A stretch of DNA of 64,000 nt from Globodera rostochiensis (Eukaryota; Nematoda; Chromadorea; Rhabditida; Heteroderidae): assembly GCA_018350325.1 (NCBI GenBank), contig JAEVLN010000024.1, positions 341,248 to 405,247 of the forward strand, in the 5' to 3' direction. The position numbers and the translations under genes were made by a program. Under the pieces are notes generated by a model, which was not told where the DNA came from, searched no databases, and saw only the letters and a list, made by a program, of their open reading frames with translations. Shown in pieces: positions 4,104 through 29,514 of this stretch. Within the stretch, counting starts at the first letter, position 1; each line of letters opens with the position of its first letter.

Positions 4104-5784
4104 TAAGATACAAAAAATGCCTAATAAGAATTACGGTTAAATGGGCAAATTACAATTGTGACCAGAACCCATTAAATATTGGGCATAAGAATAATTAAAT
4201 TGATAAAATGATTTTAGTGATTATATCTAATAGAAATAAATTATTTATTGTTTTAGAGTTCGTTCCGAAAAAGGCAAATGTTGTTTATCCGCCAGTAATT
4301 AAATATTACTGGCACTAAACGTACATGGGCATTGAAATAATGTTTGATGATCTATTAGAGATTTTTAATTCGGTAACGATAAAAATGTTTACCAAATATT
4401 TAAATATCGTGTCTTTATGTCAAAAATTTAAAATTACCCATGCAAATGCTAAAATTTAAAAAATTTCTCAGTGCAAAAGCGTCTTATTTCTTCTCATCAG
4501 CGGAGCTTAATAAGTTGCAAAATAAAAATTAATTAAAAGCATTTTTAGATTTACAAAATTAAAAGGCATTACTAAAAAATATTTTTGGTTGCACCCGGAA
4601 CTTGACTTTCTAAATAAAAAACATTTAAATTTTTAATTAATAATGCTAAAAATTAAGAAATCAAAAAATTTGTTAATCAAATAAAGGTATGTTGTAAATA
4701 ACTAAAATTCAGAAATTTGTAAAACTTCTCTTCCATTTTGCATTGTAAAACAATAATTGTTATTTAATAAATAATTAATTACAAAGATTTAAACACAAAA
4801 TGACTACCTGTTGTTGCACACTCTACTGATCAAAAATCAATTAGAACATTTAAGTTAAATTAATTTTGTTCCGTCATCGAATTACCGTCGGGTATAAATC
4901 GGGATGTCTATTTTATACCTTCTATTTCTTAACAGTATAATAAAAACAACAAGCTGGTAAACAAATTCAGGCACGATGGCACTTCGCAAATGTTAAATAA
5001 AATTTTTAATAAATAAAAAAAAGTTGGAAAATTTGTAGGCAATAAATAACAATCGAGTGTTTATCCTTTTAATTTTTTTTTGTGGTCGTATAATCATTAT
5101 TTAGAACATTTTTATTTAACGTCGCGAAGGCGAATATATCATTAACCTTTTATAATAAAAATTTATAAAACTAAAAACCTAAAAAATAAAAATATAAAAA
5201 CCAACAAGAATTGATTAATCAAATATGCTAAAATAAAATGATTGATAAAGACATACTGACGCTGGCGGGTTGCCAACCACTGCGTTACAATTGTGATGGT
5301 GTTGTTCGACTTCGTGGCCAAAAGGTAGAAGGGAGGCTCATTATTCTAAGGTTGAAATATTTTGGGCACCATTTACCAAATATGAGAGACCCTACTGGTC
5401 GAGGGGTTTTAAACAAATTTAAGGTTAAAAATTCATTATAATTTTTTGACTAAATAAGCAAAGAATTTTAAAAGGTAAAATGCGTATACTTCTATTCATG
5501 CGTTGCTATGAATGAAATACAATCAAAACACGCGTAGTGATTATGGAATACACATACTGCACTGTGACCCGTGTATAATAGGAAAACAACAAAGAGATTG
5601 TAGTTAATCAATTAAAAATACCAAAAAAAAAATTAATCTTTATAATGAAATAATTACTGAAAACCACAATGATAAAATAACGTAATAAATTAGGCGGCAC
5701 AAGTCTTCTTGCCAATACTGGTCCTGTGTACATATAATCCGTATGATAAACAAAGAATAATTGGGGGGGGGCATCTTCTGGATC
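1731..5784. other. AT-rich host flank, no confident gene
   Basis: Mostly AT-rich. A TA microsatellite lies at 4044-4098. The patch at 3446-3562 is GC-richer and open in two plus frames: one ends SEEEKAFS, the other contains PIPKKKKRFRNKK. It may be an exon remnant. The 67-codon frame at 5238-5441 has no recognisable family. Confidence 0.4.
4044..4098. repeat. (TA)n microsatellite
   Basis: Two runs of TA dinucleotides separated by AAATATAA. Confidence 0.9.
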
Positions 5785-5836
5785 AGTAGATATTGCCCGC
5801 ACACTTTGCGTCCCCTACTTGACTTTTTTTTGCTGG
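5785..5836 (+). repeat. Left terminal inverted repeat of the Maverick
   Basis: Starts AGTAGATATTG and ends TTTTTTTTGCTGG. It matches the reverse complement of 28060-28111 over 52 positions without gaps, with four mismatches. Degenerate TTGACTTTTTT motifs recur just inside at about 5990-6025. Confidence 0.88.
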
Positions 5837-6368
5837 ACTTTTGCGTTTAGTTTTTTCTGGTGGACTTTATCGATGCATATGGTGGTTGGAGGCGTATGGA
5901 TGGGTGGAAGAAGGGTCCGGGAGGGTGAGGTGGGGGACGTGCAGGGTCCAACGGGGAGCGGTGTGGGGAGAGGGTGGCCATACCTCCCTATTTGACTTTT
6001 TTCAGCTTGACTTTTGCGTTTGAATGCTCCTAACGAAATTTTTACGACGCATTTGAGGCTGCAGTGGAGGGGAGGGGGGGGGCAAAGGTTGTTGGTGGAA
6101 GAATGCAAAAATTTGACAAAACAAATAGCGTTGGCAAACGCGTTAGCAATTTGACCGATTTGGGTGTGACAAATTGTGTAACGCTGTGCCAATGTCATTT
6201 GCCCGACAAATATGCGGTACAGGTAGTATCTTTGAACTTGGGCAAAGAATGGTTGATTTGTGAATAATGATGATGTTTATACCACGGCGTCACATGCTGA
6301 TAACAAACATTGCACCATATTGGTGGTCGTATACATACAAATGCCAACTGGTCTGGTTCCCTATCTTT
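5837..6368. other. Left subterminal region, no gene seen
   Basis: G-rich plus-strand low-complexity sequence (GGGTGAGGTGGGG-like) with degenerate copies of the terminal TTGACTTTTTT motif. The short open frames on both strands show no family resemblance and strong base-composition bias, so none is called. Confidence 0.5.
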
Positions 6369-7082: not shown

Positions 7083-8469
7083 TTATGCAATTTTTGAATC
7101 CGACACAATATGGCGATTATAGTCAATCATGATCAGCTGATCAAACTCTCCGAGCACCAACATTTCAACCCCGCCCGTCGGTATGTCGTTGTTGAACTGC
7201 AGCCGGATGCTGGTCGTGCCGGAGCGCAGCAGTTCAAAGCCGCAACTGTCGTCCAGCGTCGACGTGAGCGGAACGACAAAAAAGGTCCATCCGTCTTGGA
7301 ATTGGTCCAGCGTGATGTCCATGGAGCGTTCCGAGTTTGCCATCCCCAACGCTTCGTACATGTCGACAAACGGTCGAACGTATGCGGCGTCTGCAAAGTT
7401 CATGCGATGCGGCACTGCCGGGTACGTCTGGCCAGCCGCATGCACGCTGATGTCACGGATGGAATAGGGACGGAAGTTGAAAGGCGAGTGCGCCAAATCG
7501 CCGTTGAACGCCCGGTTGAGCACCAGTGCAATGGTGACGCGTCGTGGAATCGCGGCGGAAAAGATGTTGTACTCCATCTCGGTGCGGCCGGCGCTCAGGT
7601 AGACAGACTTCATCTCCGTTTTACGCACAGCATAAGTGGCCGGCTGCCGCTCCAGGGTTTTGTAAATGGACATGTTCAACGACGGCTGCACCTCCACCAT
7701 CTTCACGTAGAGTTTGATGTCGTGCAGGTAAAGGCTGTACTTTGCGCCTTTATTTTGACCGGGTGCCAAGCAGTGCAAAAGGAAGTCGTCCTTTGCGCGG
7801 TAGATGGTGAACAGTACGTCCATGTTGTTCAACAGGTACAACTCCTGGTTGCCGAGGTCAAAGTCCAAACGAGAAATGAAGCGTGCTTTGCGCCCGCCGG
7901 CAAAACGACGACATCGCGCTATGAAGCCCGCATCCGTAGCGACGTCGTGTTTGAATGATGGATAGTAGCCGGAGCTGGCCATGAAATGCCCTTTGACACT
8001 TGCGGGGAAGGACAGCTCATTGGTCATGTACGCTTTGTACGGATACAGGGTGCCGCTGTCATACAACTCGGTGTTTTGCACTTCCACCTGAACAAAGAAA
8101 CAAGTGGTTTAATCCATGCAAACAAAAGTTGGGTCTACGTGCTTTCAATTGTTGAACAAAGGTTTGCCCAATGCACTGAATCGGCGCAACGTGTGGGTCC
8201 GCTTGTGCATCGATGGGGACCCGTTGGCCCCCGTCCTCCTTGACAATGCCCAGCTCCAGGAACAGATAGACGCGTGACATGTCGGACCACAAGCTGTCGT
8301 TGAACATGCGGAACAGATACGGCCCCTCCTGGCTGATTGTTGACAACGGGAGCAGTTCGCGGAAGAAGGAGCGATTCACAGACACGTTTGTGGGCGGCAC
8401 TGCGAACACGTTGAGTGCGCTGTTGAATGCCAGCTCACTCTGCTCGCTGATTTTTTTTGGGCAACTCAT
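7083..8469 (-). CDS. Major capsid protein (double jelly-roll, Polinton MCP; F54H12.2-like)
   Basis: Two exons, 8469-8143 and 8087-7083, give about 443 residues. Exon 1 has the N-terminal Polinton MCP pattern (FAVPPTNVSVNR, then PLSTISQEGPYLFRM, and DMSRVYLFLELGI). Exon 2 has YPYKAYMTNEL early, and near the C-terminus FVVPLTSTLDD, then FNNDIPTGGVEMLVLGEF, typical of the nematode F54H12.2-like capsid family. The phase-0 junction that restores family spacing uses a GC donor (AAA|GCACGT) and the acceptor TTTGTTCAG. A GT donor 3 bases further on would leave the frames out of register. Start at ATG 8469, 49 bp upstream of nothing else on this strand but the stop of the 8519-9193 gene. Forms the icosahedral shell with the penton protein. 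Confidence 0.88.
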
Positions 8470-9295: not shown

Positions 9296-9766
9296 CTAGA
9301 CGGCATGAGCATCGAAAATGTGTGTTCGAACAAAGGCGGAGACCAGTCGGTCTGGCTCCGTCTTCTGCTCGACAATGTGGGCAACAACGCGTCGCAGGGT
9401 CCACCCATTCCGGCATCGATGGCACAAAAAATAGATGACATGTTTGCCGCAGCTGGCCGACCGATCGGACTGCAGTGCGCGAACGTTACGGTTGACGGTG
9501 TGGAAGCGGCGTAAAAAGTTGTGAATGTACGGCGAGTACGGAGGCCAGTCGCCGAAAGAGTCAAAATAATCCACAGCGTGCACTGACTGCACATAGATGG
9601 CCACCCAGTGGCTGCCCCCTGCTGATGAGCTGTCCATGTTTGCGACCATACAGTGTGGCATCGGTCTGGCGAGCGTTGGAATGCGATCGGCTGGAAAACA
9701 GCCCACATACGCTCCACGTGTCGTGTGATTACGCCGCAAAATTTTGTCAATTTCAATTGAGTCCAT
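9296..9766 (-). CDS. Adenain-like cysteine protease (maturation protease, PRO)
   Basis: ATG at 9766 gives 156 residues, a usual length for Polinton proteases; the frame runs 21 codons further upstream without a good start. The catalytic triad of the adenovirus/Ulp1 (C5/C48) fold is visible in order: His in GSHWVAIYV, acidic residue in DYFDSFG, and Cys in SASCGKHVIYFL. The oxyanion-type Gln is in RALQSD just before the Cys. It would cleave capsid precursors during virion maturation. It lies between the pX-like and penton genes. No break is seen in the frame. Confidence 0.88.
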   Translation of the reverse strand: MDSIEIDKILRRNHTTRGAYVGCFPADRIPTLARPMPHCMVANMDSSSAGGSHWVAIYVQSVHAVDYFDSFGDWPPYSPYIHNFLRRFHTVNRNVRALQSDRSASCGKHVIYFLCHRCRNGWTLRRVVAHIVEQKTEPDRLVSAFVRTHIFDAHAV

Positions 9767-9853
9767 TTTTGTTCTAATTAAAACTTTTATCCATAATAAC
9801 GCATTCCCAAGATATATGAGTTTCCACATGCACGTACGTACACACCAAACACA

Positions 9854-11192: not shown

Positions 11193-12498
11193 TTATATGA
11201 TAGAGGTGGCAGGAATCCAACTGTTCTGTTTGTCCGAATAACCGGCCCATTTAACAAGGCATTGCTCGACGCCTGCGCGGTTTTTGCGCCGCTTCAGCAC
11301 CCGTTCAATGTCGTAGACGGCGGGCCTTGCTGATCCGTCTTTGTCTTGCATGCCCTCTTTTTCCGGCGCTTCTTTCCCGCCAAGGGGAAGCACCAAGCAC
11401 AGGTCTTGCGCATAGAACCATCCGGTCAGCACCTCCCCATCGTCATCGCGCAGCTTATAGGTCACCGGGCTGCGTGTGGTGCGCACCTCCGCTACTGTGA
11501 ACTGTTCGTCGGTGAAGCGCGGCAAATAGCCCTTTTGAAACACGTGCTTATGCTTCTCAATGCGCACGCGATCGCCCACGCGAAAGCGACGGCCGCCATG
11601 CGTGCTCCCCAAGGTTGCCGATTTAGCCTTATCCACCAGTCGTCGTCTCAGCTGTTCAGCATTCCCAAAGTTAACAGTCGGTCGGTCGCATGCCAAAGAT
11701 GGCACTGTTGGGCGATGCATTTATAGCGCTGACAACACTTTGCACTACACCGGTCCAGCATTTGGTGCCTCGGTGGGTGAAATAGCGGTAGAGTCGCTCC
11801 TGTTTTTGGCAAATGTCTTCTGCAGTAGCAATGTGGGGGGGGGGGGGGGGGGGTAAACATACTTTGATGCTACGATTTGCACGCTCCGCTATGCCGGCAT
11901 GCCATTGCGGGGAGGTGTGCATGCAGTGATGTTGCACCTCCTTTTTGGCCAGGTAGTGCTGCACTGCATTGGCAGTGAACTCTTTGCCCTGGTCGGTCAT
12001 CAGTTTCCAAGGGGTGTAGCCGGCACGACGGAAAATGTGCTCAAAAGCTGTGACAATGTGTGCGGCCTGCTTGCTCAGCACTGGCTCCACAAACAGTTGT
12101 CGGCTCAGCGTGTCCACGCAGACCAACAGATAGGCATGCCCGCGATTGTAGCGCTTAAGCTGAACAAAGTCGGCCAAATCCGCCTGCCAATCCGTGTGCA
12201 GTCCTGATGCAAGGGTGGGCAGTCGTCGGAAGCGACGCACAGCCCGTCTGTGCAACGTGTACACGCGCTGACGTGACAAATAGCGTCGCGTCTCCGCCCT
12301 GGTAATTGCATGTTGGGGATGCGCGCGGGCTGCCTCGCGCAGCAACGGCTCCACACTGGTAAAGGCGGCAGGTGAACGCGTGTCCTTGTACAGCTGGTCC
12401 AGCAAACGCTCCACCAGGCGTTCGCGCCCCTCCCAACTTTTGGAGCCATCAGGTCCAAAGGCGCGGTTTGAACGCTGTAAGGCTCCTGTTCTTCCCAT
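11193..12498 (-). CDS. Maverick integrase (RVE/DDE core plus C-terminal chromodomain), frameshifted
   Basis: Exon 1 is 12498-11863 and exon 2 starts at 11799. The 63-nt intron (GTATGT...AACAG) contains a long C/G homopolymer. The N-terminal zinc-binding-like region has LLDQLYKDTRSPAAF. The DDE catalytic acids are visible as HTDWQADLADF, LMTDQGKEFTA and HAGIAERANRS. After NASPNSAIFGMRPTD the frame stops at 11671, while the rest (FGNAEQLRRRL, the SH3-like GDRVRIEKH, and the chromodomain ending CLVKWAGYSDKQNSWIP) continues in another frame. The shift falls at a CGAC tandem repeat around 11674-11690 and amounts to one base. Either the copy is broken or the assembly is wrong. The 5' end overlaps the upstream gene by 50 bp. 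Confidence 0.9.
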
Positions 12499-13750
12499 TC
12501 CGGTTGATGTTGCTGTTGTTGTTGTTGTTGTAGAGGTTAATGTTTGGAGCAGCCTTTTTAAAACTGCTCAACTTTGATGGGGGTAAACGACTCCGCCGCC
12601 CTTTTCCACCCAGGTTGTGTGGAGGAGGAGCAGCAGCACCACGCAGTTGTCTCTTCCTTGTGGTGCCAGTGAGGTTGCTGCCGCTGCTACTGCTCATGTG
12701 CGGCCGCTGCTGCTCTGTGGTCGTTGAAAACAGTGCAAGTGAGGCCTGCGGATCCTTTTTTGCATTGGTGATGAATGTCTGGTAGCCGGGCGGTGGCTTT
12801 GACTTTGGTGTGCCAGTTGGCGTCGCTGAGTGATGTCTTCCAACAAAATGGTAGGCGAGCACGGTGCGAATGTTGCTGTCCTTGATTGGCCGGTATTCGC
12901 CGTGCATGAGGCGGTACACTTGCAGTCCTTCGTGACCACCCACCCCCAGTGCTGCAGCATTTTGTTGCACATACTCCAGCACCTCTTGTTGCCGACGCGC
13001 AGCCTCTTCCGAATTGAATTTCGGTGCTGCAGCAGCAGCAGCAGTGCCTGTTGCGCCATTTGTTGTCGGTTTCGCTTCTGCGTTTTCTTGTTGTTTCTCC
13101 ATGGGGTAATGCCCCTTATCATCGCCCTCCTCCTCGCGCGCCTCCACCTCCATTTCATCACCAGTAAACGCCGAGGCAAATGAGGACGTGGATGGGTGTA
13201 CAGTGCGACTACCACGCCGCTTCGCCCCCACCACGTGTTCATTTGCTGCAACACTGCTTCTGCTGGCGCCAGTAGAAGCGTCAGATTCTGTAGACGGCGC
13301 CTCTGCCCCAGTTGCGGTCGGAGCATGCATGTGTCGTCTTTTTGTACGCAGGCGCACACGCGGTGGTGTTTCCGTTTGTTGGTGCATAATTGCGCCGGCC
13401 TCTGCCATCGCGTCACGCAGCACTGCTTTTGACGCCGCGTCGCTGGGCAATTGTGTGAGACGTACATTTGTCGGTCGCTCCTGCTCGTCCGCCAGCAGTT
13501 TCTGGTAACGCTTGAACTCCTGTTGATAGTGGATCAAGCGTTCGTCGCTGTTCATCAACTTTGCTGCATCATTGCTGCCCGCCAGGCGTGCCATGCGGGT
13601 CGCCGTATGCGCAATGGGCGTGACGGTGGCTGGTGCAGTTCCGGAAATGGTTGTCGGACCGGCGCTGTCCGACACACTGCCGCTCATCATCATCATCAAT
13701 TTGGCGTACATGTCTTCCGGTATGAGCAGCATACGCGTCGTGTGCTTCAT
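12449..13750 (-). CDS. Conserved Maverick protein of unknown function, Gln/Ala-rich
   Basis: The ATG at 13750 shares bases with the stop of the preceding gene (ATGA). About 433 residues; a longer frame upstream to 14032 belongs to shadow sequence. Recognisable blocks are the start MKHTTRMLLIPEDMYAKLM, then QQEFKRYQKLLADEQERP and VRTVLAYHFVGRH-like text near residue 320 (RTVLAYHFVGRH), then GTPKSKPPPGYQTFI. Similar blocks occur in other Polintons immediately upstream of the integrase, but no function is known. Long low-complexity, basic and acidic stretches separate them, and the C-terminus is Asn-rich then KPRLWT. It overlaps the integrase start. Confidence 0.65.
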   Translation of the reverse strand: MKHTTRMLLIPEDMYAKLMMMMSGSVSDSAGPTTISGTAPATVTPIAHTATRMARLAGSNDAAKLMNSDERLIHYQQEFKRYQKLLADEQERPTNVRLTQLPSDAASKAVLRDAMAEAGAIMHQQTETPPRVRLRTKRRHMHAPTATGAEAPSTESDASTGASRSSVAANEHVVGAKRRGSRTVHPSTSSFASAFTGDEMEVEAREEEGDDKGHYPMEKQQENAEAKPTTNGATGTAAAAAAPKFNSEEAARRQQEVLEYVQQNAAALGVGGHEGLQVYRLMHGEYRPIKDSNIRTVLAYHFVGRHHSATPTGTPKSKPPPGYQTFITNAKKDPQASLALFSTTTEQQRPHMSSSSGSNLTGTTRKRQLRGAAAPPPHNLGGKGRRSRLPPSKLSSFKKAAPNINLYNNNNNSNINRNGKNRSLTAFKPRLWT

Positions 13751-14289
13751 ATTTTTTGGGGTCGCGTCGTTGTTGTCGTTGTCTTTGTTGTCGACAGCGC
13801 GGACACCACTTTGTCTACAAGGAGTGGGAGCACGGTGCTGGCAAGCAGTCCGGCCAAAGCTGGCACCCCGCGACCAGTCTGTTGACGCAGCAGAAGGGTG
13901 CGTGCCCCGCGCGCGCTCCTGGTCTTGCTGAGGGTGCGCACAAGTTGCGCCTGGCCTCGTAGGCGGCGCAAGTGTGTGCTGCTGGTTGGCACCCGAGAGC
14001 GCAGCACGTTCAACGCGCACTCGACCAGGCACAACAATTGTTCAGTGCTTGCACTTCTGACCAACGTACGGTAGGCACGCCCGCGTGCTGAACGACACTT
14101 GGTCAGCCGTTGGATGAAGTCGATGTTCTGTCTGACGTACGGGCTTGGTCCGCCAAGTGTTGGGACAGCAACACTGATGCGCGTTCTTCCTCTCCTGCCC
14201 CGTACTGCTTTGTTTGCTGTTGATGATGTTTGTTTTGATGCCGGTTGGGTTGTTTTATTGTTGTTGTTGTTGTTGTTGTTGTTCTGCAT
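13747..14289 (-). CDS. Conserved small Maverick protein with hydrophobic C-terminal helix
   Basis: ATG at 14289 gives 180 residues; the frame extends eight codons more to a GTG. It starts with an Asn run encoded by the same CAA repeat that encodes the Gln tail of the ATPase in another frame. Conserved features: an arginine-rich region (VRGRRGRTR), LLCLVECALNVLRSRVP, a repeated RTLSKTRSARGARTLL motif, then GRGVPALAGLLASTVLPLL, a hydrophobic segment. Polintons and adintoviruses commonly encode a small protein ending in a GG/hydrophobic LPLL-type segment beside the ATPase. A membrane-active or core role has been suggested for such proteins, but none can be read here. Confidence 0.62.
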   Translation of the reverse strand: MQNNNNNNNNNKTTQPASKQTSSTANKAVRGRRGRTRISVAVPTLGGPSPYVRQNIDFIQRLTKCRSARGRAYRTLVRSASTEQLLCLVECALNVLRSRVPTSSTHLRRLRGQAQLVRTLSKTRSARGARTLLLRQQTGRGVPALAGLLASTVLPLLVDKVVSALSTTKTTTTTTRPQKI

Positions 14290-15016
14290 TGAACATTTCA
14301 GCACCCTGTGCACGTGGCAGGTACACGACGGTCAACTCGCCAGGATATATATGCGTTCTGAGTCGCATCGGTGGCCTTGTGGTGGGGTGCATGTCGATGA
14401 GCAGGTAGCCAAACGGCTCCGCTGTCGCATCCTCGTACGCCTCAATGAAGTGTGCAAGTGCACCGCCCGGGAACAGCTGTGTGCCCAGTGTACGCACTTG
14501 CAACGCGCCCGCCGGATTGCGTAACAGCACCAGATAGTGGGAATTGTTACGCGCAATGCGCAGCTCGCGCGTGAACAGATGCTGTGTCAACAGCACCACG
14601 CTGACTCCCCAGTTGTGAGACCCACGTGTGAACAGCACGTCTAGGAACGGAGCGCGCATGCCGACCATCAGGTCGTCCAGCACCAGCAACAGGCGGCCTT
14701 GCATGTTTCGCGCCTCACGCTGAACATGCGCCTCCTCTGGCACCCCGTGACAGACACGAATTGTAGTGTCCATTTGTTGCAGCCTCAACACCTCCTCATT
14801 CACTTCTCCAAAGCAGTAGAGCACCCCGTAGATGGGCGTGTCGACCATGGCCGCCAAATTGCTCAACATTCGCAATACCCATTGCGATTTTCCGCTTCCC
14901 GTGCAACCGGACACGCACATTGTGAACGGGTGACGGAAGACAGGCGGTGGCGGCGGCGGCGGCGTCGCCTGCGCCATTGTACAATGATGTTTCCATGCGG
15001 TTGTGTGTGCGCTCAT
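14255..15016 (-). CDS. A32-like FtsK/HerA DNA-packaging ATPase
   Basis: ATG at 15016; 253 residues, a second in-frame ATG is at 14977. A Pro run is followed by the Walker A motif SGCTGSGKSQW (about residues 36-46), then the Walker B motif RLLLVLDDLM (about residues 107-116) and SVVLLTQHLF, a sensor-like block as in poxvirus A32 and Polinton ATPases. The C-terminus is a pure Gln tail from a CAA repeat. It would pump the genome into the capsid. It is divergently oriented from the PAZ gene, with a TATA-rich stretch between. It overlaps the next gene downstream by 35 bp. Confidence 0.92.
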   Translation of the reverse strand: MSAHTTAWKHHCTMAQATPPPPPPPVFRHPFTMCVSGCTGSGKSQWVLRMLSNLAAMVDTPIYGVLYCFGEVNEEVLRLQQMDTTIRVCHGVPEEAHVQREARNMQGRLLLVLDDLMVGMRAPFLDVLFTRGSHNWGVSVVLLTQHLFTRELRIARNNSHYLVLLRNPAGALQVRTLGTQLFPGGALAHFIEAYEDATAEPFGYLLIDMHPTTRPPMRLRTHIYPGELTVVYLPRAQGAEMFNAEQQQQQQQQ

Positions 15017-15063
15017 CCATTTGTTTGCCTATCCGGCGACAGCAGCCCACTAAAATTGCACTC

Positions 15064-15377: not shown

Positions 15378-16348
15378 ATGAGAAAGATGAGCAGTCTGTT
15401 GGCGAGCTCCTCTACAAAGGTGGAACAAAAAAACCGACTTCTGAGCGAAAAGCAACAGGGTTTGAATCAGAAGAGGAGGAAGACGGGGAATCAGCCGCAT
15501 CCAGCGACGGCCGCAGCTTCATCAACCCGCGAACATGCACCACTCCTCTTCATTGACGATGATGATGATGATGATGATGATGATGAAGACGTTGTTGAAG
15601 ATGGTGGTGAAGAGGAGATGGAATGGGAGAGGGCGAAAACAAAAGTAACTGCCAATAAAAGCGGCACGACCGAAGGCCAAACCAGCGTCAATTTGCCACT
15701 GATTGACTACCTCTGCGCATACAACAACTCGTGCACGTTGAAAGAGCTGGACGCGCTGTTCCGTTGTGCGCCGGCGCGTCGACGCATGCTCGTACAACTA
15801 CAACAACACTGCAACCTGCGCACCGCACACTTACGCCCTTCTGAGCGTAACATTGTGTTGCATGCGCATGACTTTAGCGCGCTGAACGGCGACAAAACGT
15901 TTGCATGCGGCGGCTACCTGGGCTTGACGGTGGCTGCTTTATAGCACTTATGTCAAACAATCTATTTTCATGGTCGCCTTTTTTTACACAGGTGCGTCAA
16001 TACTATTTTGCAAAACACAGCATTCGGCTGAAGCACGCGCACCTGCCCACCCTGATCGAATTTGGCGGTGGCACACACGCGTCATATTACCCGCTCGAGT
16101 GTGTGCACGTGGTGCTAAGTGCATCCGCCGCTGGTGGTGCCGGTGGTAGTGGGGGCTGTGCTAACGCTGCGATTAACGATATAACAAACGGGAGCGGCCA
16201 TCGTTGGCGCGTGGCGCGTCGAACGCACGCACCGCCGAGTGCGGGCGGTTCATTCTGCTGGCCTCCGGGACTGACGTCATCAGCAGCAGCAGCTGCGGCG
16301 ACACCAGACGACGGCCACCGCTGTTGCTGTGCCGCATGTCGAAGATAG
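15378..16348 (+). CDS. Stand-alone PAZ-domain protein (Argonaute-derived), Maverick cargo
   Basis: Exons 15378-15929 and 15992-16348; 62-nt GT-AG intron, phase 0, acceptor TTTTTACACAG; about 302 residues. Residues 1-105 are low complexity, with an acidic Asp run from a GAT microsatellite. Residues 107-225 follow the Argonaute PAZ fold in order: LPLIDYLCAYNN (family: P-V-I-E-F-L-C), a middle block RRRMLVQLQQHCNL then DFSALNGDKTF, and, spanning the splice site, LT / VRQYYFAKHSIRLKHAHLP then YYPLECVHVV (family: V-x-x-Y-F...Y-x-I-x-L-x-Y-P-H-L-P...Y-L-P-L-E-V-C-x-I-V). PAZ binds 3' ends of small RNAs. No PAZ-preceding N domain, MID or PIWI follows; the tail is Gly/Ala/Cys-rich. A role as small-RNA binder or RNAi decoy is inference. 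A Dicer-type PAZ is less likely, given the PLE motif. Confidence 0.78.
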
Positions 16349-16503
16349 GCGCGCGTGTCGCGCGACCCCTGAAAATCACCTTAAAAAATACCCGTTTCCC
16401 CATCCATCACACTTTGTCACACATTTTTCAAATCGCAATATTTGCATGACGTGTGTGTACGCGTGTAAATGTTTCTTACGTACCCTGTTCTGAAGGATTA
16501 AAA

Positions 16504-17369
16504 ATGCAACAACAACAACAACAACAAATTTTGGTGCAAAACAGTACAACAACATTTCAACTCCATCTGTTGTCGTCCGTATGTTTCAGTGCCGACCAGT
16601 TTTTGGCGGTGGCACGTAACGCGTGGTGCACTGAGTACGCTCCGCAGCGCTTCCACGCCATTGTGATGCGTTTGCGTCAGCATGATGGACGCGTTGGAAC
16701 TGATGGCTCTTGCACGCACGACGGTAGCAGCACATCTACCACGTCAACAACAACCGCTCTCATCTTTCGCAGTGGGCGTGTTGTGCTCACCGGCGTCTCG
16801 TGTGGCTCCCTTACGCGCATTCGCAACCGTTGCATGCGTCAGGCACGTCGTGTATGCAAGCGGGTACGCATGGCTCTCGTGCGTGGAGGGCATGCCAGCG
16901 TTGCGGGCACGCTGGCCGTACGACATTTGACGGTGTGCAACCTTGTGTCCACCGTGCGCATGCCCTATCGCATCGACATTGAGAATTGGCACGACATCTA
17001 GGCGGCGTGCAACGATGCGCTGCGACTCGTCAAAATACTCTTGTTGCTGATGGTCAGGTGGGGCAGGCGCCACCATCACACCCGCACCTCATCAGTCATG
17101 TGAGGCGCGTTTGTCTGGATTTGTGCACCTTCCCAGCACTACGCTGCACCTTGGAGCTGGCGCGCGCTGGCGGCACGGGCGCCACGGACGCTCCTCAGCC
17201 TGGCGACGTAGCGAAAGCCGAGGGGGACGATGGGCGTCACGCATGTGCAACACCGTCACTGTTGTTCTTTGTCACTGGGCGTGTGATTGTCACCGGAGTG
17301 CGCGATCCGGTGGAACTGGAGTGTGCAACGCACGCCACGCGATGCCTATGTGCCCAATTTCGAAGATAG
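16504..17369 (+). CDS. TATA-binding protein (TBP) homologue carried by the Maverick, one frameshift
   Basis: ATG 16504 opens a short Gln run, then TBP repeat 1: VARNAWCTEYAPQRFHAIVM, a low-complexity insert (about residues 59-82), then TTALIFRSGRVVLTG and helix RIRNRCMRQARRVCKRV. Repeat 2 begins LTVCNLVSTVRMPYRIDIEN. There the frame stops at 16999, and the remaining repeat continues in the frame running to 17369 (TFPALRCTLE, insert, SLLFFVTGRVIVTGV). The break is one base near 16984-16987, with no splice signals. All four DNA-intercalating Phe positions of TBP are kept (RF, LIF, TF, LFF). Cellular TBP nucleates Pol I/II/III initiation. Here it might drive element promoters. It is downstream of and co-oriented with the PAZ gene. 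Confidence 0.82.
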
Positions 17370-17501: not shown

Positions 17502-20500
17502 TCAACAATTATTTCGCGTCAAATGTACAAGCTGGCGTCGTTCCTGATCCCATGCAGAGCATCCGGGAACAGGCTCAGCCTCCTCCGCCTCCGCCTCCAT
17601 CAGTGGCGCATCAGCAGCAGCAGCAGCGGCAGCAAATGTTTGTTGGCGCTGTGTGTGTGTGTGGCCAATATTTGTAAAATGAATACACACTTGAATGTGA
17701 TGAAAACCAACCGAGACTGCAGGAGATGTACTGCACTGAACACCCATTTGTTCTTGTTGCTCACTGCAGTCGTCGTCGTTATCGTCGTCACTTCCGCCCT
17801 CCTCCTCCTCCTCTTCATCTGGCTGTTCAGTTGCCGGATACCACCCAAAGGGTCGGGTCCGTAAGAACATTGGGCATGGGTTCATTGTGGGTGACTCGTG
17901 TTGATGGGGCTGTTCAGGGTGCATGTCCGGCTGCTCATCTGCTGTCCGGATAACACGCCCCTTGGTGTAGACGGGGCGGTAGATGCGAGTGCTGTGCCTC
18001 GTGAATATGTCGGCACGACAGGAGCGCACAAAGCGGTGACATGGGACAGCGATGGAGCGTTGGCGGGTGTGCGCACCCTGATGCCTGAGTGAACACGAAC
18101 GGGTGGGGTGGGCTAAAAGATAAAGAAAATACCTTCCAAAGTGGTTGATCACCAGCTGACGCATTCGCTCATATTGCAACAAGTTGCTGGCCGCATAGTT
18201 TAGCTCAAAGGAGCGGACTTTGCGCTCCGCTTTTGCATCGCCACCCGTGCGCGCGTCCACGTGCATGAAGCCGTAGTTTTTTGGACCAGCGGCAAAGAAG
18301 TCGACGATGCGACGGTCGGGAAACTCACGCTTCATGTCGCCCAGCGCGCTGCCCTCGCGCACGCCGGCTGCATCGCGCCTTTTCACATACACCACGCTGT
18401 CCGTATCGCAGTACACGGCACGGCCGCCCACTCGACGCACCTCCTCCAACCATTCGTACAGACACAGTCGGGCATGCGACGTGACGAAGCATGCGACCGC
18501 CAGGTTGTTGTGCTCCGGCGCCCGGGCGAACGGCTCACGTTTGCGCACCACGCAGCGGTCCATCTGCTCGTTGATGTGCGTGAAGCTGACCACCTCCTGG
18601 CGCGCGTCGGCCAACAGGTCGTGGAATTCACGCGCAGTGGACGTGTACTGCACGTTGTCGCGCTCCGGACGCTCTGCCATCTTGCCCCACAGTGCGTTCA
18701 GCAGGTCTTTGGCCAATTGGCGTAGGCCCGGGTTGTGGCGCACGTTGTCTGCACGTAGGTGCACCCCATGCTCCTCCGCGTACCGCCGCACGTAGTCCGC
18801 GCGCGCTGCTTCCCCGTCACAGCCGGCCGGCCACCCGCTCGACTCCGCCTTCAGCCGCAAAAAGGTGTTCACGTAGCCGGTGAACAGTCCGTTGCCGTGC
18901 TCCGGCGATGCCCACTGGTCGTAGTGCCACACCTCATACACGTCCAGCACGCGGTAGCCAAGCTGAAGTGCGCGGTTCAACTCCACATGCGTGTACGCGT
19001 ATGTCCAGGCACGCTCGCGCTCCTGATGACGGCAGCGGCCCTGCTGGCGCAGTTCGCTGCAGCGCGCGCACAGCCCGAAGATCAGACGCCCGTCCGCACG
19101 TGTGCGGTAGGGCAGCAGCGGTTCGTGCGCACCGAGCGCGCACGCTGTTGGCGCCAACACGCGGCAGAACAGGAAGCCGACAAATGGGTTGTCCTCCGGC
19201 CGGCACCAAGGCAGTTGCGCCGGTAGAAGAGCCGGTGGGGGAGTTGTTGTTGTTGCCATTGTGTTGCCGCTGTCCCACAGCTGATCGCCAGTCCACACGC
19301 GTGGAAGCCCGATGGGAAAGCTGCGTGTTTTCATGCAGTATGGGTACAGGGACACCTGTGTGTGTGTGTGTATTTTTAAGACTGGAACGCTTAACATATG
19401 CATGCATACATACAATGTCAATGTAGACCAGCTCCTCATCCGGTGCGCATGTATACAGCAGGTAGAAGGGCTCCACTCGCCCGCCAAACAGCGCGTGTTG
19501 GCGCAAATCCAGCGGGCCCGGCACTTGGGCGCAGCAGCGCTCGTTGTACAACTTACGCACGTGTGCGTTTGTGCGCAGCATGCGCTTGAACTCGCATTCC
19601 CATACCGAAAGCACCTCCATCCCGTGCCTTTGGCGCAATTCCCAGGCGCGCTGCTCAGTGCGTGCCCACAACAGTTCCGCACTGCGCCCACCCGCCAACA
19701 GCATGCGACGGTCGGGGAAACAGTTGCGACACCCTGCAAATAATTGGCGTGCGTGAACGTGTATAAACGGGCAGATGGTTCAAGCCTCACCCTCCCCTTC
19801 ATCCCTTCTCTCCCACCCCCCTTTTTCTCTTCAACTAGTTACCATGCGCATAGCAGCCGTTGTACTCAATACAAAGTGGGCGCAGCGGCGGGTGCCGATA
19901 GGCCACACAGTCGAGCCGGAAGCCGTCATCCTCCACGCACGCCTCGCCGATGGCCCATTGGGCGGTGTGCAGCGCTCCGAGGTCGGGCCGAAGCGCGTGG
20001 AGCAGTGCAAAAAAGCGACGTGACGCCACAGATGCACGCCGTCCGCGCAGGAAGCCGCCCTCCGGCGTCTGCACCATCGTGTTCGGAGGCAGATGATGTT
20101 GCCGGAACACGGCCATGGCCAGACTGGCAATTGTGGTTGCCGCCAAAAATGGTTCCATGCCGCCCGCACACTCGCCCACCAGCTCACGAAGACGCAGACA
20201 GGCCACACGCAGTATACGCACGTCTCAAATAGTTTTTATGGAGTGCATGTACTCTTGTTCAAATTGCCCCCCCCCCCTCCCCTCTCGGGCGTACCATTCC
20301 AACAGTAGCGCAACAGCTCACGCCGGAGCACAAATGGCTGGCGGCCAGGCCGGTGCAACTCGCGCTCATACCACTCCAAGAACAGGGCACGCTGAGCGGG
20401 GCGCATCCTGTCCGGGTCGTATGCGCGGCGCGGTGGCAACACATTGGCCGGAAGCACCACATCCATGTTTTGCTGATGGATGTAGTGGTAGGGAAAAAAC

Positions 20501-23100
20501 GGCTTGGCCGGCACCCCCTGCAGCCCAAATGTGGCGGGCAACGCTGCCAAGGCACAGTGGAGGAAGTTCAACGAATCTTTGCAGATCAGTTGTCGCTGGT
20601 GGACACCCCTGAGCTCCAACATGTACACGCGCAGTCCATGCTGAACCGCCTTCTTTGGACGCTCACCCCTTCGCTGCAATTCCTCTAGCAACAAATGGAT
20701 GTCATAACGGCCCTGTGGATGGTAAAATGCTGTTAGACCTATATATTAATATTGCTCTCTCCCCCTCGCCCCCCTTTAAACATACGGCATTGTGTGCGAG
20801 CATCACCGTGCAAATGCCTTTGGGGCCGGTATGAAGCAAAAAGTCGACCAGCTGCTCCATTGCCCCACGGCCTGTGCCCGGCTCTCCGTCACAGAAGAAG
20901 CGTAGCCGGCGCGGGTTCAGCCCATCCGGTGGAATTTGTTGATGTAGTTGTTGCTCGCCGATGACACCGTCGTCGTTGTCGTCGTCAAACAGCTCCTCTC
21001 CGATGCGTGCACACCATCGGCGACGGTTTGCCCCGCGCCAGGGGACGCCACAGACGCAGCCGGGCGCTCGGCGCATCGGCTCCGTCTCCAGCTGAACGCC
21101 ATAGACGACGCACCGTTCGCAGATCACTTCAGCACAGACCAGCACCGGCACGTGCTTTAGCAGGGGTGCCGGTTCGTCGTCGTCGCCGCCACTATCATCA
21201 TCATCATAATCATCATCATCAACATTGTCGTCATTTACATTTGCTGCAACAACCACATTGCGACCATCGGGCGTCAGCCGTTCTTGCGCGCACTCAACAT
21301 CCCAAAAGATGAAGCGTACCGGCTTATTCCGCCGGCCGGGCCGCCTTTCATTGGCGCCCAATACATCACCGTCATTGTTGTCGTCGTCGGCGTCATCGTC
21401 GCTTGAAACATCCGCAACAACATTGTCGTTGTCGATCTGTTGTTGTTGTTGTTGTTGTTGTTGTGGTTGTTGCCAGTGGAGCTGGCGTGGATAGTTTTTT
21501 GGTTGAATAAAGTGCGGGGTGGTGACTGGGTCATGTGGGCCGCCACACTTTTTGCACTGTTGAGGTTGTTGTTGTTGTTCAACTGTGCCGCCATGCGCAT
21601 GTATGTGTGACAGGTCGCCGGCGTCCAACGCTGCTGCAGCACCTTCAGTTGGTGCATGCTGGCGCCCGCAATGGTGCGGGCCGTAACGTGCCCACACCAC
21701 CACGTTGCAGCGCTCGCACAACCGCCTCTCCTCGCACATTGAGCGATGCGGGCGCCCTCTGCGTCGGTCAACCAACGCTTCGCGCGTGCCCGGCGGCGGC
21801 GGGTCGACGCGCTGACGGTGCGCCTCGAAACAGTCCATGTTCGGGAACACGAAGCGGCATTGGGCACAATGCAACTGGCGCTGGTCCTCGCCCACCTGCC
21901 GCCTGCACGGGAACTGCAAACCATCATAGCGCAAACACAGCGCGCACACTGCCCGGCATCCCAGAGGATGCGAGTGCCGGTTCACCGGACGTTCGCACTC
22001 GACACAATACTGTTTGGCCTAGATTTTTGGTTATATTACGTTATTATAATATTATTTTTGCTCTTTCGTCGTACCCGAAACAGCTGAGCCGGTCGCTGAA
22101 TGTAGCCAAAGTGGGCGCCCCGTTGGAGTAGAAGGCAAAGGTTGAACGCTGCACGCTGCGCTCCCTTCCACAGCACACGGCAGCCATGCTCACGCTCGAA
22201 CACCACCAGGCGTACCAAATGGGCGCCAAGCTGCGTGTCCAAAGCTTGCTGCAGTCGGTGCGCTTCCGCCATCCCGTAGGCGGGCATGTTGAGCGGAAGT
22301 TCTGCCAGCTGGAGCAACTGCTCGGCCGCCCGCGTGCCGCCCTCCGCCCGTTGGCCGAGACAAAAGGTGCGAAAGTGTGCTGCACATTGCGCGCTCCCCT
22401 CTCCAAAGGTGAGTTGGCAGCGCCGATCGCCCAGGCCGAGCACGACGGCACGTGCCATGCACCAACGGTCCTGCGGGTTCACCACCGGAACGTATGAGCG
22501 GCAGCGGATGGTCCCACGCGCCTCGAATTCGTCAGCAGCGCATGCTCCTGTTGCTCCCCTTTCACCTTTAACACATGACATCATCATACCCATCATTTTC
22601 AGTGATTGTCCCCTGCCCCTTCCCCCGCCACCCCGTCCCTCGCCCCTCCGTCCTCGCTCCTCCGCCCCGGCCCTCCGCCCCCGCCCAATAGCCAACCGCT
22701 TGCGGAGGACAGTGCCCATACGGCGCTGATGCGAAACATGACGGTGCCGGAGAAGAGATCAACACCGCCGGCCGACTGGACTGCCAGTCGTTCCAGTTCG
22801 GCGGCCATTGCCTCAGGCGTGTTCTGCACCGCCGACCGGTGTGGTATATGGTATGGGGTGGCAAATGTTGGTGGCTGGCATGAGAGGCCGATGCGCATCG
22901 GTGCCACTCGGTCCGACAACACGCGCTGCAGTAGATGCGCAATGCACTGTGCCAGCAGCGTGTCGGGCCGACGGGCGCCCTCCCAGCCGCGCAGGGACAC
23001 TTCTACCGCCTCACAACGCGTGTTGCGGCTTCGACACTCCGTGCGCTCCCATACGCCAACAATTTTACAGAAACGCTCAACATGCGCTCCTTCATTGTCT
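17502..23100 (-). CDS. Protein-primed family B DNA polymerase (pPolB), multi-exon
   Basis: In-frame exons: 22018-20786, 20712-20295, 20223-19843, 19733-19414, 19355-18133 and 18084-17502, with preceding exons ending at 22075 and at about 22722. Introns are 48-81 nt with GT-AG ends. Exonuclease motifs: FIFWDVECAQ (I), AHN... split by an intron (II), YCWN then D after an intron (III). Polymerase motifs: A (D-x-x-SLYP, split after YIDI), B (KDLLNALWGK), C (YCDTDSVVYV). Cys/His-rich fingers (CVECERP, CALC, CAQC) precede exo I, as in Polintons. C-terminal TRHSTRIYRPVYTKGR and PFGW end the family region; an acidic and Ala/Glu tail follows. The 5' frame is open to 23351 with no ATG, and the splice joining about 22722 to the 22.5-kb exon could not be phased, so the start is unsure. 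Replicates the element. Confidence 0.9.
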
Positions 23101-23776: not shown

Positions 23777-24433
23777 TCAACGGTCCATTGTTTTCCCGGT
23801 CAAAAAGTGGGCAGAACAGAGGGGGCACACGCGGCGGTGACGCGCCTCTTGCTCAAAGCACACCAGATGCAGAATATGGGCGCACAAAAGTCGAACAACA
23901 GACTGGTTTTTGCCCATCAACCAGTCATAACATATCGGGCATGTCAAATTTTGCCTCCCTTCCTCGTCCGTCTCCGGCACCCCCTTCACCGATGAAGGAA
24001 GGCACTGCATCACAAATGCCGTGCTGCACAGCCAATCACGGTCAGCCGCCGGCAGTGGGTGGTGGTCCAGCACCTGGACCACATTTGGCACGCCCTCGAC
24101 CATGCCATGCTGGATGAGGTCCTCGACGGGCCACATCTCTCCAGCGTAAAAGCGCTGGTCGGCGCTCAACAGTGCCTGTTGACCCTCAAGGCCCAGCGGT
24201 GGCGCTTCATCACCATCATCATCTTCATCCGACTCGCCAATCGTGATGAGCGGAATTTGGCGATTGCGACGCCGGCGCTGTCGTTCGCGCGCATTGCGCT
24301 CATCTCTCGCAACCTGTTGTTCAAGCAGGTTGATTTGCCCGACAACGTGGTGAAGGCGTTGTTGCGCGCAGACGGCGCTGGCCCGAGATGGAGGCCGCTC
24401 TCGAGCCGGAGGGCGATTGGCACAAAGCCAGCC
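23777..24433 (-). CDS. RING-H2 finger protein (probable E3 ubiquitin ligase), or terminal exon of the OB-fold gene
   Basis: The frame is open from 24433 to the stop at 23777 (218 codons) with no ATG in its first 110 codons. That implies an upstream exon. The N-terminal part is a basic coiled-coil-like region (INLLEQQVARDERNARERQR) and then an acidic patch (GESDEDDDGDEAPP). A C-terminal RING follows: CPIC, then LLCAHILHLVCF (C-x-H-x2-H-x2-C), then CPLC. RING domains recruit E2 enzymes to ubiquitinate targets. An acceptor-like AG precedes 24433, and a strong phase-0 donor (ACG|GTGAGC at 24725/24724) lies in the last exon of the upstream OB-fold gene. The two may therefore be one protein of about 690 residues. 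The acceptor lacks a pyrimidine tract, so this is unproven. Confidence 0.72.
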   Translation of the reverse strand, partial: GWLCANRPPARERPPSRASAVCAQQRLHHVVGQINLLEQQVARDERNARERQRRRRNRQIPLITIGESDEDDDGDEAPPLGLEGQQALLSADQRFYAGEMWPVEDLIQHGMVEGVPNVVQVLDHHPLPAADRDWLCSTAFVMQCLPSSVKGVPETDEEGRQNLTCPICYDWLMGKNQSVVRLLCAHILHLVCFEQEARHRRVCPLCSAHFLTGKTMDR

Positions 24434-24715
24434 CTTTTATTTTAATCACATTTAAATTTTAAATATCATTGTTTTTGAATATTAAATTATAATTAAACAA
24501 ATATTTATAAACCTTTTACAATTAGAAGTTTTCTTACCCCCCCCCCTCCCCAAATTGTTAAAAAACTATTATTATTGTTGCACGATTTACTAAGGACTTT
24601 GTGTATTTTAAAAACAAAATGATCGATTATTTAAAAAACATTTATTTTTAACACGTCAAGTTCAGTGAATTTTTTTTTTCAATTTCAACATCGCCATCTT
24701 TTCCCATCATTCCGC

Positions 24716-27846: not shown

Positions 27847-28091
27847 GCTTGAGCGCCTCCGGGGGTGCATTGCAATGGCCAGCAAAAAAAAGTCAAGTAG
27901 GGCACGCAGATAATGCCAAACCACAACATCATTCTCCCATTCCACCACCCCCCACAGCCCCTGAACACGTTCTCCCCCTCCACCACAGCCCCTGAACACG
28001 TTCTCCCCCTCCACCGTCCCCCGCTAGAGCGCCTCCGGGGGGGGGGGGCATTGCAATGGCCAGCAAAAAAAAGTCAAGTAGGGCACGCAAA
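27847..28091. repeat. Internal duplication of the right subterminal region
   Basis: The stretch from GAGCGCCTCCGGGGG through GGCCAGCAAAAAAAAGTC to AGTAGGGCACGC occurs at about 27850-27912 and again at about 28026-28088. Between the copies a smaller unit (CCCCTGAACACGTTCTCCCC) is itself repeated. The inner copy therefore contains part of the terminal repeat but not its outer 20 or so bases. Long C runs make lengths uncertain. Confidence 0.8.
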
Positions 28092-28111
28092 CAGTGCGGC
28101 CAATATCTACT
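28060..28111 (-). repeat. Right terminal inverted repeat of the Maverick
   Basis: Reverse complement of the left terminal repeat (48/52 identical). The outermost bases read CAATATCTACT on the plus strand and are followed by gatatttttt of the host. Confidence 0.88.
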
Positions 28112-29514
28112 GATATTTTTTTTTGTTTTCTATTTATCATATTATTTTTTTTAATTCAAAATTTTTTAATGAACTGTTAGACCAATCGAAAAAGGTAGTG
28201 ATTTGATAAATTTAAATTGTCGTATATAAAAAATTAAAATTATGGGTATTTTATTTCAATTAAAAATAAAGCGTGTGTCTTAGTTTTGGTTTAACCATTT
28301 TGTAGATCTATATAATATCTAAATACATAAAAGAATGAACATAAAATATAACTTAGATTTAATTTTGAAATAATCTTATTAACTTTATTTCACAAACATG
28401 AAAAAAAATCACAGGTTTTTGATTTGAATTATTTTAATTTGCCTTAATTTATCAATCATCGTTTCTCATATTTTGCCTTTCAATAATGTATTAAATTTAC
28501 ATTTTTGGTCACATGTTATAATTTAAATGAATTTTCGTTCTTATTTATTTTATCTATGGCATTGTTTGAACTTTTTATTAAAAAGCTAACTTAAATTTAT
28601 TTGGTTGTTCTTGATATTTTCAATAATTAAAAATGGGAGCTTTTCAGTCAACTTTGGTTATGATGATGTGTTATATTATTATAGAACAGTGTATAATTGA
28701 TATATTCATAATTTTTGATTTATCATTTGCAGTTTTTGATATTGGTATGAATTATTTTGTAACTTAAAATGTCGGGTTTGGATATTCATTTTTCTCCCCC
28801 TCGCACAATCCACCCAAATCTGCTTTTCTCGAGAACAGCTTTGGGAGTGAGTTTATGGACGACTTCTTATAATGTTTACTTTTTTTTAACATTAATTCAT
28901 CAATTTCTTGAATCAATCACACTATATACCAAAATATGGTCCATTTATTTAGATATAATTTGGCTTTACATTTTATGCGCTGATTGGGTTTTTGAAATTG
29001 TTTATTTAAATGTTTTAAATGATAATTTTCGTAAACATACGACTTAAACCTTTATAATAAAAGCAATTTAATTCGTGTCTTTAAGTTTACTGTTGGCTTT
29101 TATAACTATTTAGTATTATTTGTATTAATAAAATAAGAAAGAGAATATGTAAGTGTTAACTTGAACGGATGAACTTTTTTTCAGTCAGTAGAATTAAAGA
29201 AAAAATTAGACACATTTAAATAGAGCTAAAATTTTATATGTTATTGTATTTATAATTTTACGACTTTAATTAAACCTTGATTGTGGAATGTTTTCATATT
29301 TGTATAATATAAATTTAAAATATTTTATTGCTAAGATATTCAACTAGTATCTGATAATTAGTTGAAACTATATGTTGGTGATGGCGAACTGTCACTTGCG
29401 CATGAAGTTTCAAGCAGGCGCAACTAAATTTTCTGTTTATCATTATTATAGCAACATTTTATTTTATTTTATTAAAGATTATAATTAAAATGGTTTTTTA
29501 TTCTTATTATCATA

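What the first reader, a model, noticed from the sequence alone, without database searches (positions are those of the whole stretch)
15378..16348. A Maverick carrying a free-standing Argonaute PAZ domain
Sequence shows a two-exon gene inside the terminal repeats whose residues 107-225 follow the Argonaute PAZ pattern. A clean phase-0 splice joins the two halves of the PAZ core. No MID or PIWI domain follows. Established: PAZ binds small-RNA 3' ends; Argonautes mediate antiviral RNAi in nematodes. Inference: the element captured part of a host Argonaute and uses it as a small-RNA sponge or dominant-negative suppressor of silencing. I know of no described Polinton with a PAZ-only protein.
Basis: partly seen in the sequence, partly recalled or inferred. 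Interest (0 to 1): 0.93.

Follow-up and report, generated by a model that had tools for sequence, protein, structure and literature searches.

The report
Nematode Mavericks encode stand-alone PAZ proteins
A virus-like mobile element in a roundworm genome carries a small protein made of just the part of Argonaute that grips the tail end of small RNAs, and many related elements in the same genome carry it too, which suggests a long-kept tool for interfering with the host's RNA-based defence.

The parts
5782..5841 (+). left terminal inverted repeat
   Evidence: 60 nt, 90% complementary to 28055-28114
28055..28114 (-). right terminal inverted repeat
15378..15929 (+). PAZ gene, exon 1 (acidic low-complexity N-terminus, then first part of PAZ from about 15696)
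   Evidence: relatives
15930..15991 (+). 62-nt phase-0 GT-AG intron
   Evidence: same position in three relatives
15992..16348 (+). PAZ gene, exon 2 (rest of PAZ to about 16117, then Gly/Ala-rich tail and stop)
16504..17369 (+). TBP-like gene next to PAZ (neighbour; second lobe is in another frame and seen by eye only)
   Evidence: Pfam TBP E 4.6e-9 on 16450-17001; frames; neighbours in relatives
7083..8108 (-). putative major capsid gene used as Maverick marker (label recalled from motifs, not confirmed by a database)
   Evidence: for relatives; no labelled match
9296..9853 (-). adenovirus-type cysteine protease
   Evidence: Pfam Peptidase_C5 E 2.3e-4
11671..12567 (-). integrase core
   Evidence: Pfam rve E 2.6e-13
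14255..15028 (-). packaging ATPase (A32-like)
   Evidence: Pfam Pox_A32 E 2.9e-5
17502..20745 (-). DNA polymerase B, in more than one frame
   Evidence: Pfam DNA_pol_B_2 E 8.1e-9 on 17502-19838, weak 0.023 on 20236-20745; PHROG DNA polymerase 9.9e-22

Best explanation
The gene encodes a free-standing PAZ domain of Argonaute ancestry (shown by profile, and by predicted fold of close relatives). Mavericks of this nematode keep it as a regular gene (shown: several divergent groups, co-divergence, purifying selection). Most likely it suppresses the host's RNA silencing: the small protein occupies the 3' ends of small RNAs (siRNA overhangs or single-stranded secondary siRNAs). Lacking MID and PIWI it can neither anchor the 5' end nor slice, so it keeps these RNAs from working Argonautes and the element's transcripts escape silencing (inferred). 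The disordered tails and the faster evolution of PAZ relative to the putative capsid gene fit a protein that faces the host rather than the virion (inferred). Identity about 0.97; this mechanism about 0.5.
For: PAZ profile and fold. Stand-alone: no PIWI within 10 kb of any of the 40 PAZ loci near Maverick genes; in a clade-B protein the confident fold is residues 1-126 and the rest is disordered. Kept and used: 20 of 21 full-length putative capsid genes have PAZ within 10 kb; Mantel r 0.934 over 16 elements; dN/dS 0.04-0.18 in 13 of 14 pairs with a finite ratio. 3'-end grip: at the hAgo2 positions that a passage of PMC5896489 names as contacts of the 3' overhang, 24 Maverick rows have H/Y at 271, H/Y at 311, R/K at 315 and H at 316 in 24 of 24, and Y/F at 338 in 23 of 24. 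Virus proteins that sequester small RNAs are known (abstract naming P19 in the listing).
Against: No binding, expression or silencing experiment. The window protein alone is below Pfam's cut-off. Y311 is H in 19 of 24 rows; R277 (K in 11 of 24), Y279 (0 of 24), F294 (9 of 24) and K335 (0 of 24) of hAgo2 are not generally kept. An isolated PAZ may bind RNA only weakly (recalled). 14 of 52 merged capsid-gene loci have no PAZ hit within 20 kb, 9 of 59 PAZ loci have neither Maverick nor PIWI gene near, and several PAZ copies are interrupted. One near-identical pair gives dN/dS 0.52. No other species was searchable.
Confidence: 0.5

Rival explanations
1. The PAZ protein serves the element's own cycle: it binds 3' ends of single-stranded DNA or of transcripts during protein-primed replication or packaging, not host small RNAs.
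For: PAZ lies near PolB in many copies (at least 24 of 59 PAZ loci within 6 kb of one of 29 PolB intervals) and co-diverges with the putative capsid gene. A review passage says DNA can bind the PAZ domain of AGO2 (PMC6361761).
Against: PAZ evolves faster than the putative capsid gene (one pair 39% against 87% identity), unlike what one expects of a core replication part. BFVD shows no viral relative at E<=0.001.
Confidence: 0.2
2. A protein decoy: the PAZ fold competes for a protein partner of Argonaute or for its assembly, without using the RNA pocket.
For: Stand-alone Argonaute domain with part of the pocket changed; fast evolution.
Against: H316 and basic 315 are kept in 24 of 24 rows, and positions 271 and 311 keep H or Y in 24 of 24, which a pocket-free decoy would not need.
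Confidence: 0.13
3. A functionless fragment of a host Argonaute that happened to be captured.
For: Nematode Mavericks are reported to acquire host genes as cargo (passage in PMC10680173). Some copies are interrupted.
Against: dN/dS well below 1, presence with 20 of 21 full-length putative capsid genes, co-divergence, conserved intron position.
Confidence: 0.02

Closest known systems
PAZ domain of eukaryotic Argonautes (human Ago1-4, fly Ago1/2)
   Same: Profile match over nearly the whole domain, same predicted fold, several 3'-end-contact residue types kept
   Different: About 20% identity to hAgo2 PAZ in the structural alignments; no MID or PIWI; domain stands alone with low-complexity tails
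Nematode Mavericks/Polintons with acquired genes (Widen and colleagues, seen only as a passage of the meeting report PMC10680173)
   Same: Virus-like element of a nematode with integrase, PolB, protease and ATPase plus accessory genes
   Different: That passage names a fusogen, wosp proteases and krma kinases, not a PAZ protein
Small-RNA-sequestering viral suppressors such as P19 (abstract in the listing; details recalled)
   Same: Proposed logic: bind small RNAs so that Argonaute cannot use them
   Different: Different fold and origin; here the binder would be a captured Argonaute domain that holds 3' ends, and activity is not shown

Membership tests
PAZ domain (Pfam PF02170) | profile match above the curated cut-off | tested here: met
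   Met by relatives (17 of 18 at E<=0.01, best 3.7e-11, L012 30.6 bits; several relatives over the cut-off). The window protein itself does not reach it (19.3 against 28.8 bits)
PAZ domain (Pfam PF02170) | PAZ fold | tested here: met
PAZ domain (Pfam PF02170) | binding of nucleic-acid 3' ends | not testable with these tools
   Contact residue types partly kept
Argonaute protein | PIWI domain (with MID) after PAZ | tested here: not met
   No PIWI hit in the window and none within 10 kb of the 40 PAZ loci near Maverick genes
Dicer PAZ | closer to Dicer than to Argonaute PAZ | tested here: inconclusive
   Only Argonaute-family chains are listed, but the lists are capped and Dicer was not placed in the tree
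Maverick/Polinton | terminal inverted repeats around integrase, PolB, protease and ATPase | tested here: met
Maverick/Polinton | capsid genes | tested here: inconclusive
   7083-8108 has recalled capsid motifs; no labelled match
Maverick/Polinton | target-site duplication | tested here: inconclusive
   none found for repeats of 5-9 bases at offsets tried
Viral suppressor of RNA silencing | demonstrated suppression of silencing | not testable with these tools
   needs an experiment

The most novel reading that the evidence does not exclude
Nematode Mavericks carry, as a core gene acquired in one old event, a PAZ-only protein that turns the host's own small-RNA grip into a silencing suppressor: an RNAi suppressor that is itself a captured piece of the RNAi machinery, kept because worms rely on small RNAs against mobile DNA.
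Probability: 0.45. Interest if true: 0.92.

Novelty: new variant of a known kind. Interest (0 to 1): 0.83.

Why it matters
How virus-like DNA transposons persist in animals with strong small-RNA defences is open. A PAZ-only protein kept by divergent Mavericks of one nematode would be a direct and testable counter-defence made from Argonaute's own domain. It also gives a marker gene to look for in other nematode Mavericks, which are reported to carry genes between species.

Tried and rejected
Host Argonaute fragment inserted after the element: rejected (TBP-like neighbour in the window and two relatives, co-divergence, no PIWI near). Chance splice: rejected. Intron inherited from a host Argonaute: not supported; in five host loci (C8, C34:4018k, C34:1198k, C12:4249k, C4:1647k) the exon seen runs through that position. 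Same intron in clade C (C16:921k): I could not place a GT-AG intron there that keeps the frame; about 17 extra codons read through in that copy, while some other clade-C copies have a stop there; left open.

Number of captures: with the long-branch row C5:2617k in the tree the Maverick rows were not on one side; with it left out they were, support 94/85, just under the star threshold. Five near-duplicate Maverick rows were dropped before both trees. The topology test answered that no test was needed. One capture is favoured, not shown. C5:2617k has neither PIWI nor Maverick gene near and is unidentified.

Selection of rows: one search used the 80 capsid-gene rows and part of the 100 PolB rows; one search used part of both. 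I looked through the PolB rows left out of these lists and saw none near the 9 PAZ loci that have neither neighbour. The PAZ loci are the union of three searches with limits E 0.001 and 0.01, so some are weak; copies of one element family are not independent.

Other collections: the 125-residue window PAZ against phages by tblastn, no match; viral contigs with A1, 56 pattern stretches, none confirmed; viral contigs with the capsid-gene alignment A3, 27 stretches, none confirmed; BFVD, 216 matches at E<=10, none at E<=0.001. Papers: Jeong 2023 on nematode polintons is not held; Widen 2023 was seen only through a meeting-report passage. That no PAZ protein of a Polinton is in print rests on searches (listings) and on passages: PAZ has 0 occurrences in PMC11071308, PMC11071296 and PMC13419823, and the two papers holding both 'PAZ domain' and 'Polinton' use them in unrelated passages.

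Full report
What is there. The window lies in an unnamed 92.6-Mb genome in 80 contigs with 122 exact copies of a 22-mer that I recall as the nematode spliced leader SL1, against 0 for the reversed control, so the host is a nematode. Positions 5782-28114 are bounded by 60-nt inverted repeats and are far richer in GC (0.529) than the flanks (0.263 and 0.274). Inside are Pfam matches to rve integrase, DNA_pol_B_2, adenovirus protease and A32 ATPase: a Maverick/Polinton. On the plus strand 15378-15929 and 15992-16348 join over a 62-nt phase-0 GT-AG intron to a 302-residue frame, the only open combination among those scanned.

One element or many? Hits of three PAZ searches were merged into 59 loci and compared with PIWI hits and Maverick hits (putative capsid gene; PolB). 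Result: 40 of 59 have a Maverick gene within 20 kb and no PIWI within 10 kb; 10 of 59 have PIWI and no Maverick gene; 9 of 59 have neither; 0 have both. The 10 are presumably the host Argonautes. From the other side, 38 of 52 merged capsid-gene loci have a PAZ hit within 20 kb, all of these within 8 kb; 14 of 52 have none, several of them fragments. Of the 21 loci with a full-length match to the capsid gene, 20 have PAZ within 10 kb. The exception, C65, lies on a contig of 71,218 bases, and by the arrangement of its nearest relative (C45:1590k) the PAZ gene would start at the contig's end. About 1.04 of 92.6 Mb lies within 10 kb of a capsid-gene locus, so the association is not chance, although many copies are near-identical and not independent. 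The label 'capsid' rests on motifs that I recall; Pfam, PHROGs and PDB sequence searches do not confirm it. The conclusion does not hang on it: the Pfam-labelled PolB also lies near many PAZ loci (at least 24 of 59 within 6 kb, using 29 PolB intervals).

How old, and is it used? For 16 elements with both genes, pairwise PAZ and capsid-gene distances correlate at r 0.934 (permutation p 0.0001), down to capsid-gene identities of 31%. NG86 dN/dS for PAZ is 0.04-0.18 in 13 of 14 pairs with a finite ratio and 0.52 in one nearly identical pair; 2 of 16 pairs were saturated. For the capsid gene it is 0.02-0.12 in 10 pairs. PAZ is thus constrained but faster: in one pair the capsid gene is 87% and PAZ 39% identical. 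A tree of 19 Maverick and 5 Argonaute rows puts the Mavericks on one side at 94/85 once an unidentified long-branch row is left out; with it the picture is unresolved. One old capture is the simplest reading, not proven. The intron sits at the same place and phase in the window and three relatives, is absent from the intron-free clade-A copies and clade B, and is not at that place in five host Argonaute loci.

Can it hold an RNA end? A passage of PMC5896489 names H271, R315, H316 and Y311 of hAgo2 as contacts of the overhang's phosphodiester and Y338 of the 3' hydroxyl. In 24 Maverick rows positions 271 (H/Y), 311 (H/Y), 315 (R/K) and 316 (H) keep these types in 24 of 24, and 338 is Y/F in 23 of 24. 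The window has H271, Y311, K315, H316 and Y338. Against this, R277 is K in 11 of 24 and otherwise changed or absent, Y279 is kept in none, F294 in 9 and K335 in none. A 3'-end grip is plausible but altered, and nothing here measures it.

How it most likely works. Shown: a constrained, fast-evolving, stand-alone Argonaute-type PAZ protein encoded by nearly all elements here whose putative capsid gene is full length. Established, from general knowledge: PAZ binds small-RNA 3' ends, and nematodes silence mobile DNA by small RNAs. Inferred: the protein masks small-RNA 3' ends and weakens silencing of the element. I give this about 0.5. The strongest rival is a role in the element's own replication or packaging (0.2), then a protein decoy that does not use the pocket (0.13).

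Known or new? The searches of open papers gave no report of a PAZ protein in a Polinton or Maverick; two key papers on nematode Mavericks could not be read, so absence from print is not proven. I class it as a new variant of a known kind: a known type of element with an apparently undescribed putative silencing suppressor made from a host silencing domain. Beside it lies a TBP-like gene that is also repeated near this genome's Mavericks and deserves its own study.

Noticed in passing
window 16504-17369 (+); also C14:1251295-1251816, C1:3139826-3140296, C24:640614-641129 and others: A TATA-binding-protein-like gene lies directly downstream of PAZ on the same strand in the window and in two relatives; 58 TBP hits in the genome, a number of them near PAZ or PolB hits. 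In the window the second lobe is in another frame (by eye).
   Followed up: partly
L085 (C31:391800-401700); similar inverted pairs on C14, C33, C13, C24, C59, C28, C16, C56: TBP-like genes occur as inverted pairs about 5-7 kb apart; the C31 stretch is a long, nearly complete palindrome with 100% complementary arms of 1826, 850, 777, 580 and 385 nt. It may be a Maverick-derived palindromic element or an assembly fold-back.
   Followed up: partly
window 23777-24436 (-): RING-finger protein (Pfam zf-RING_2 E 6.1e-7) inside the Maverick, a possible ubiquitin-ligase-type accessory protein.
   Followed up: no
C5:2617651-2617854 (L008): PAZ hit with neither PIWI within 10 kb nor a Maverick gene within 20 kb, long branch in the tree; unidentified, perhaps a divergent Argonaute or Dicer.
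   Followed up: no
clade-C Mavericks, e.g. C16:916000-923000 (L069): In the copies listed, the putative capsid gene is split at about the same place and the PAZ frame has about 17 extra codons at the clade-A intron position, with a stop in some copies: a shared intron that I could not define, or a shared damaged ancestor.
   Followed up: partly
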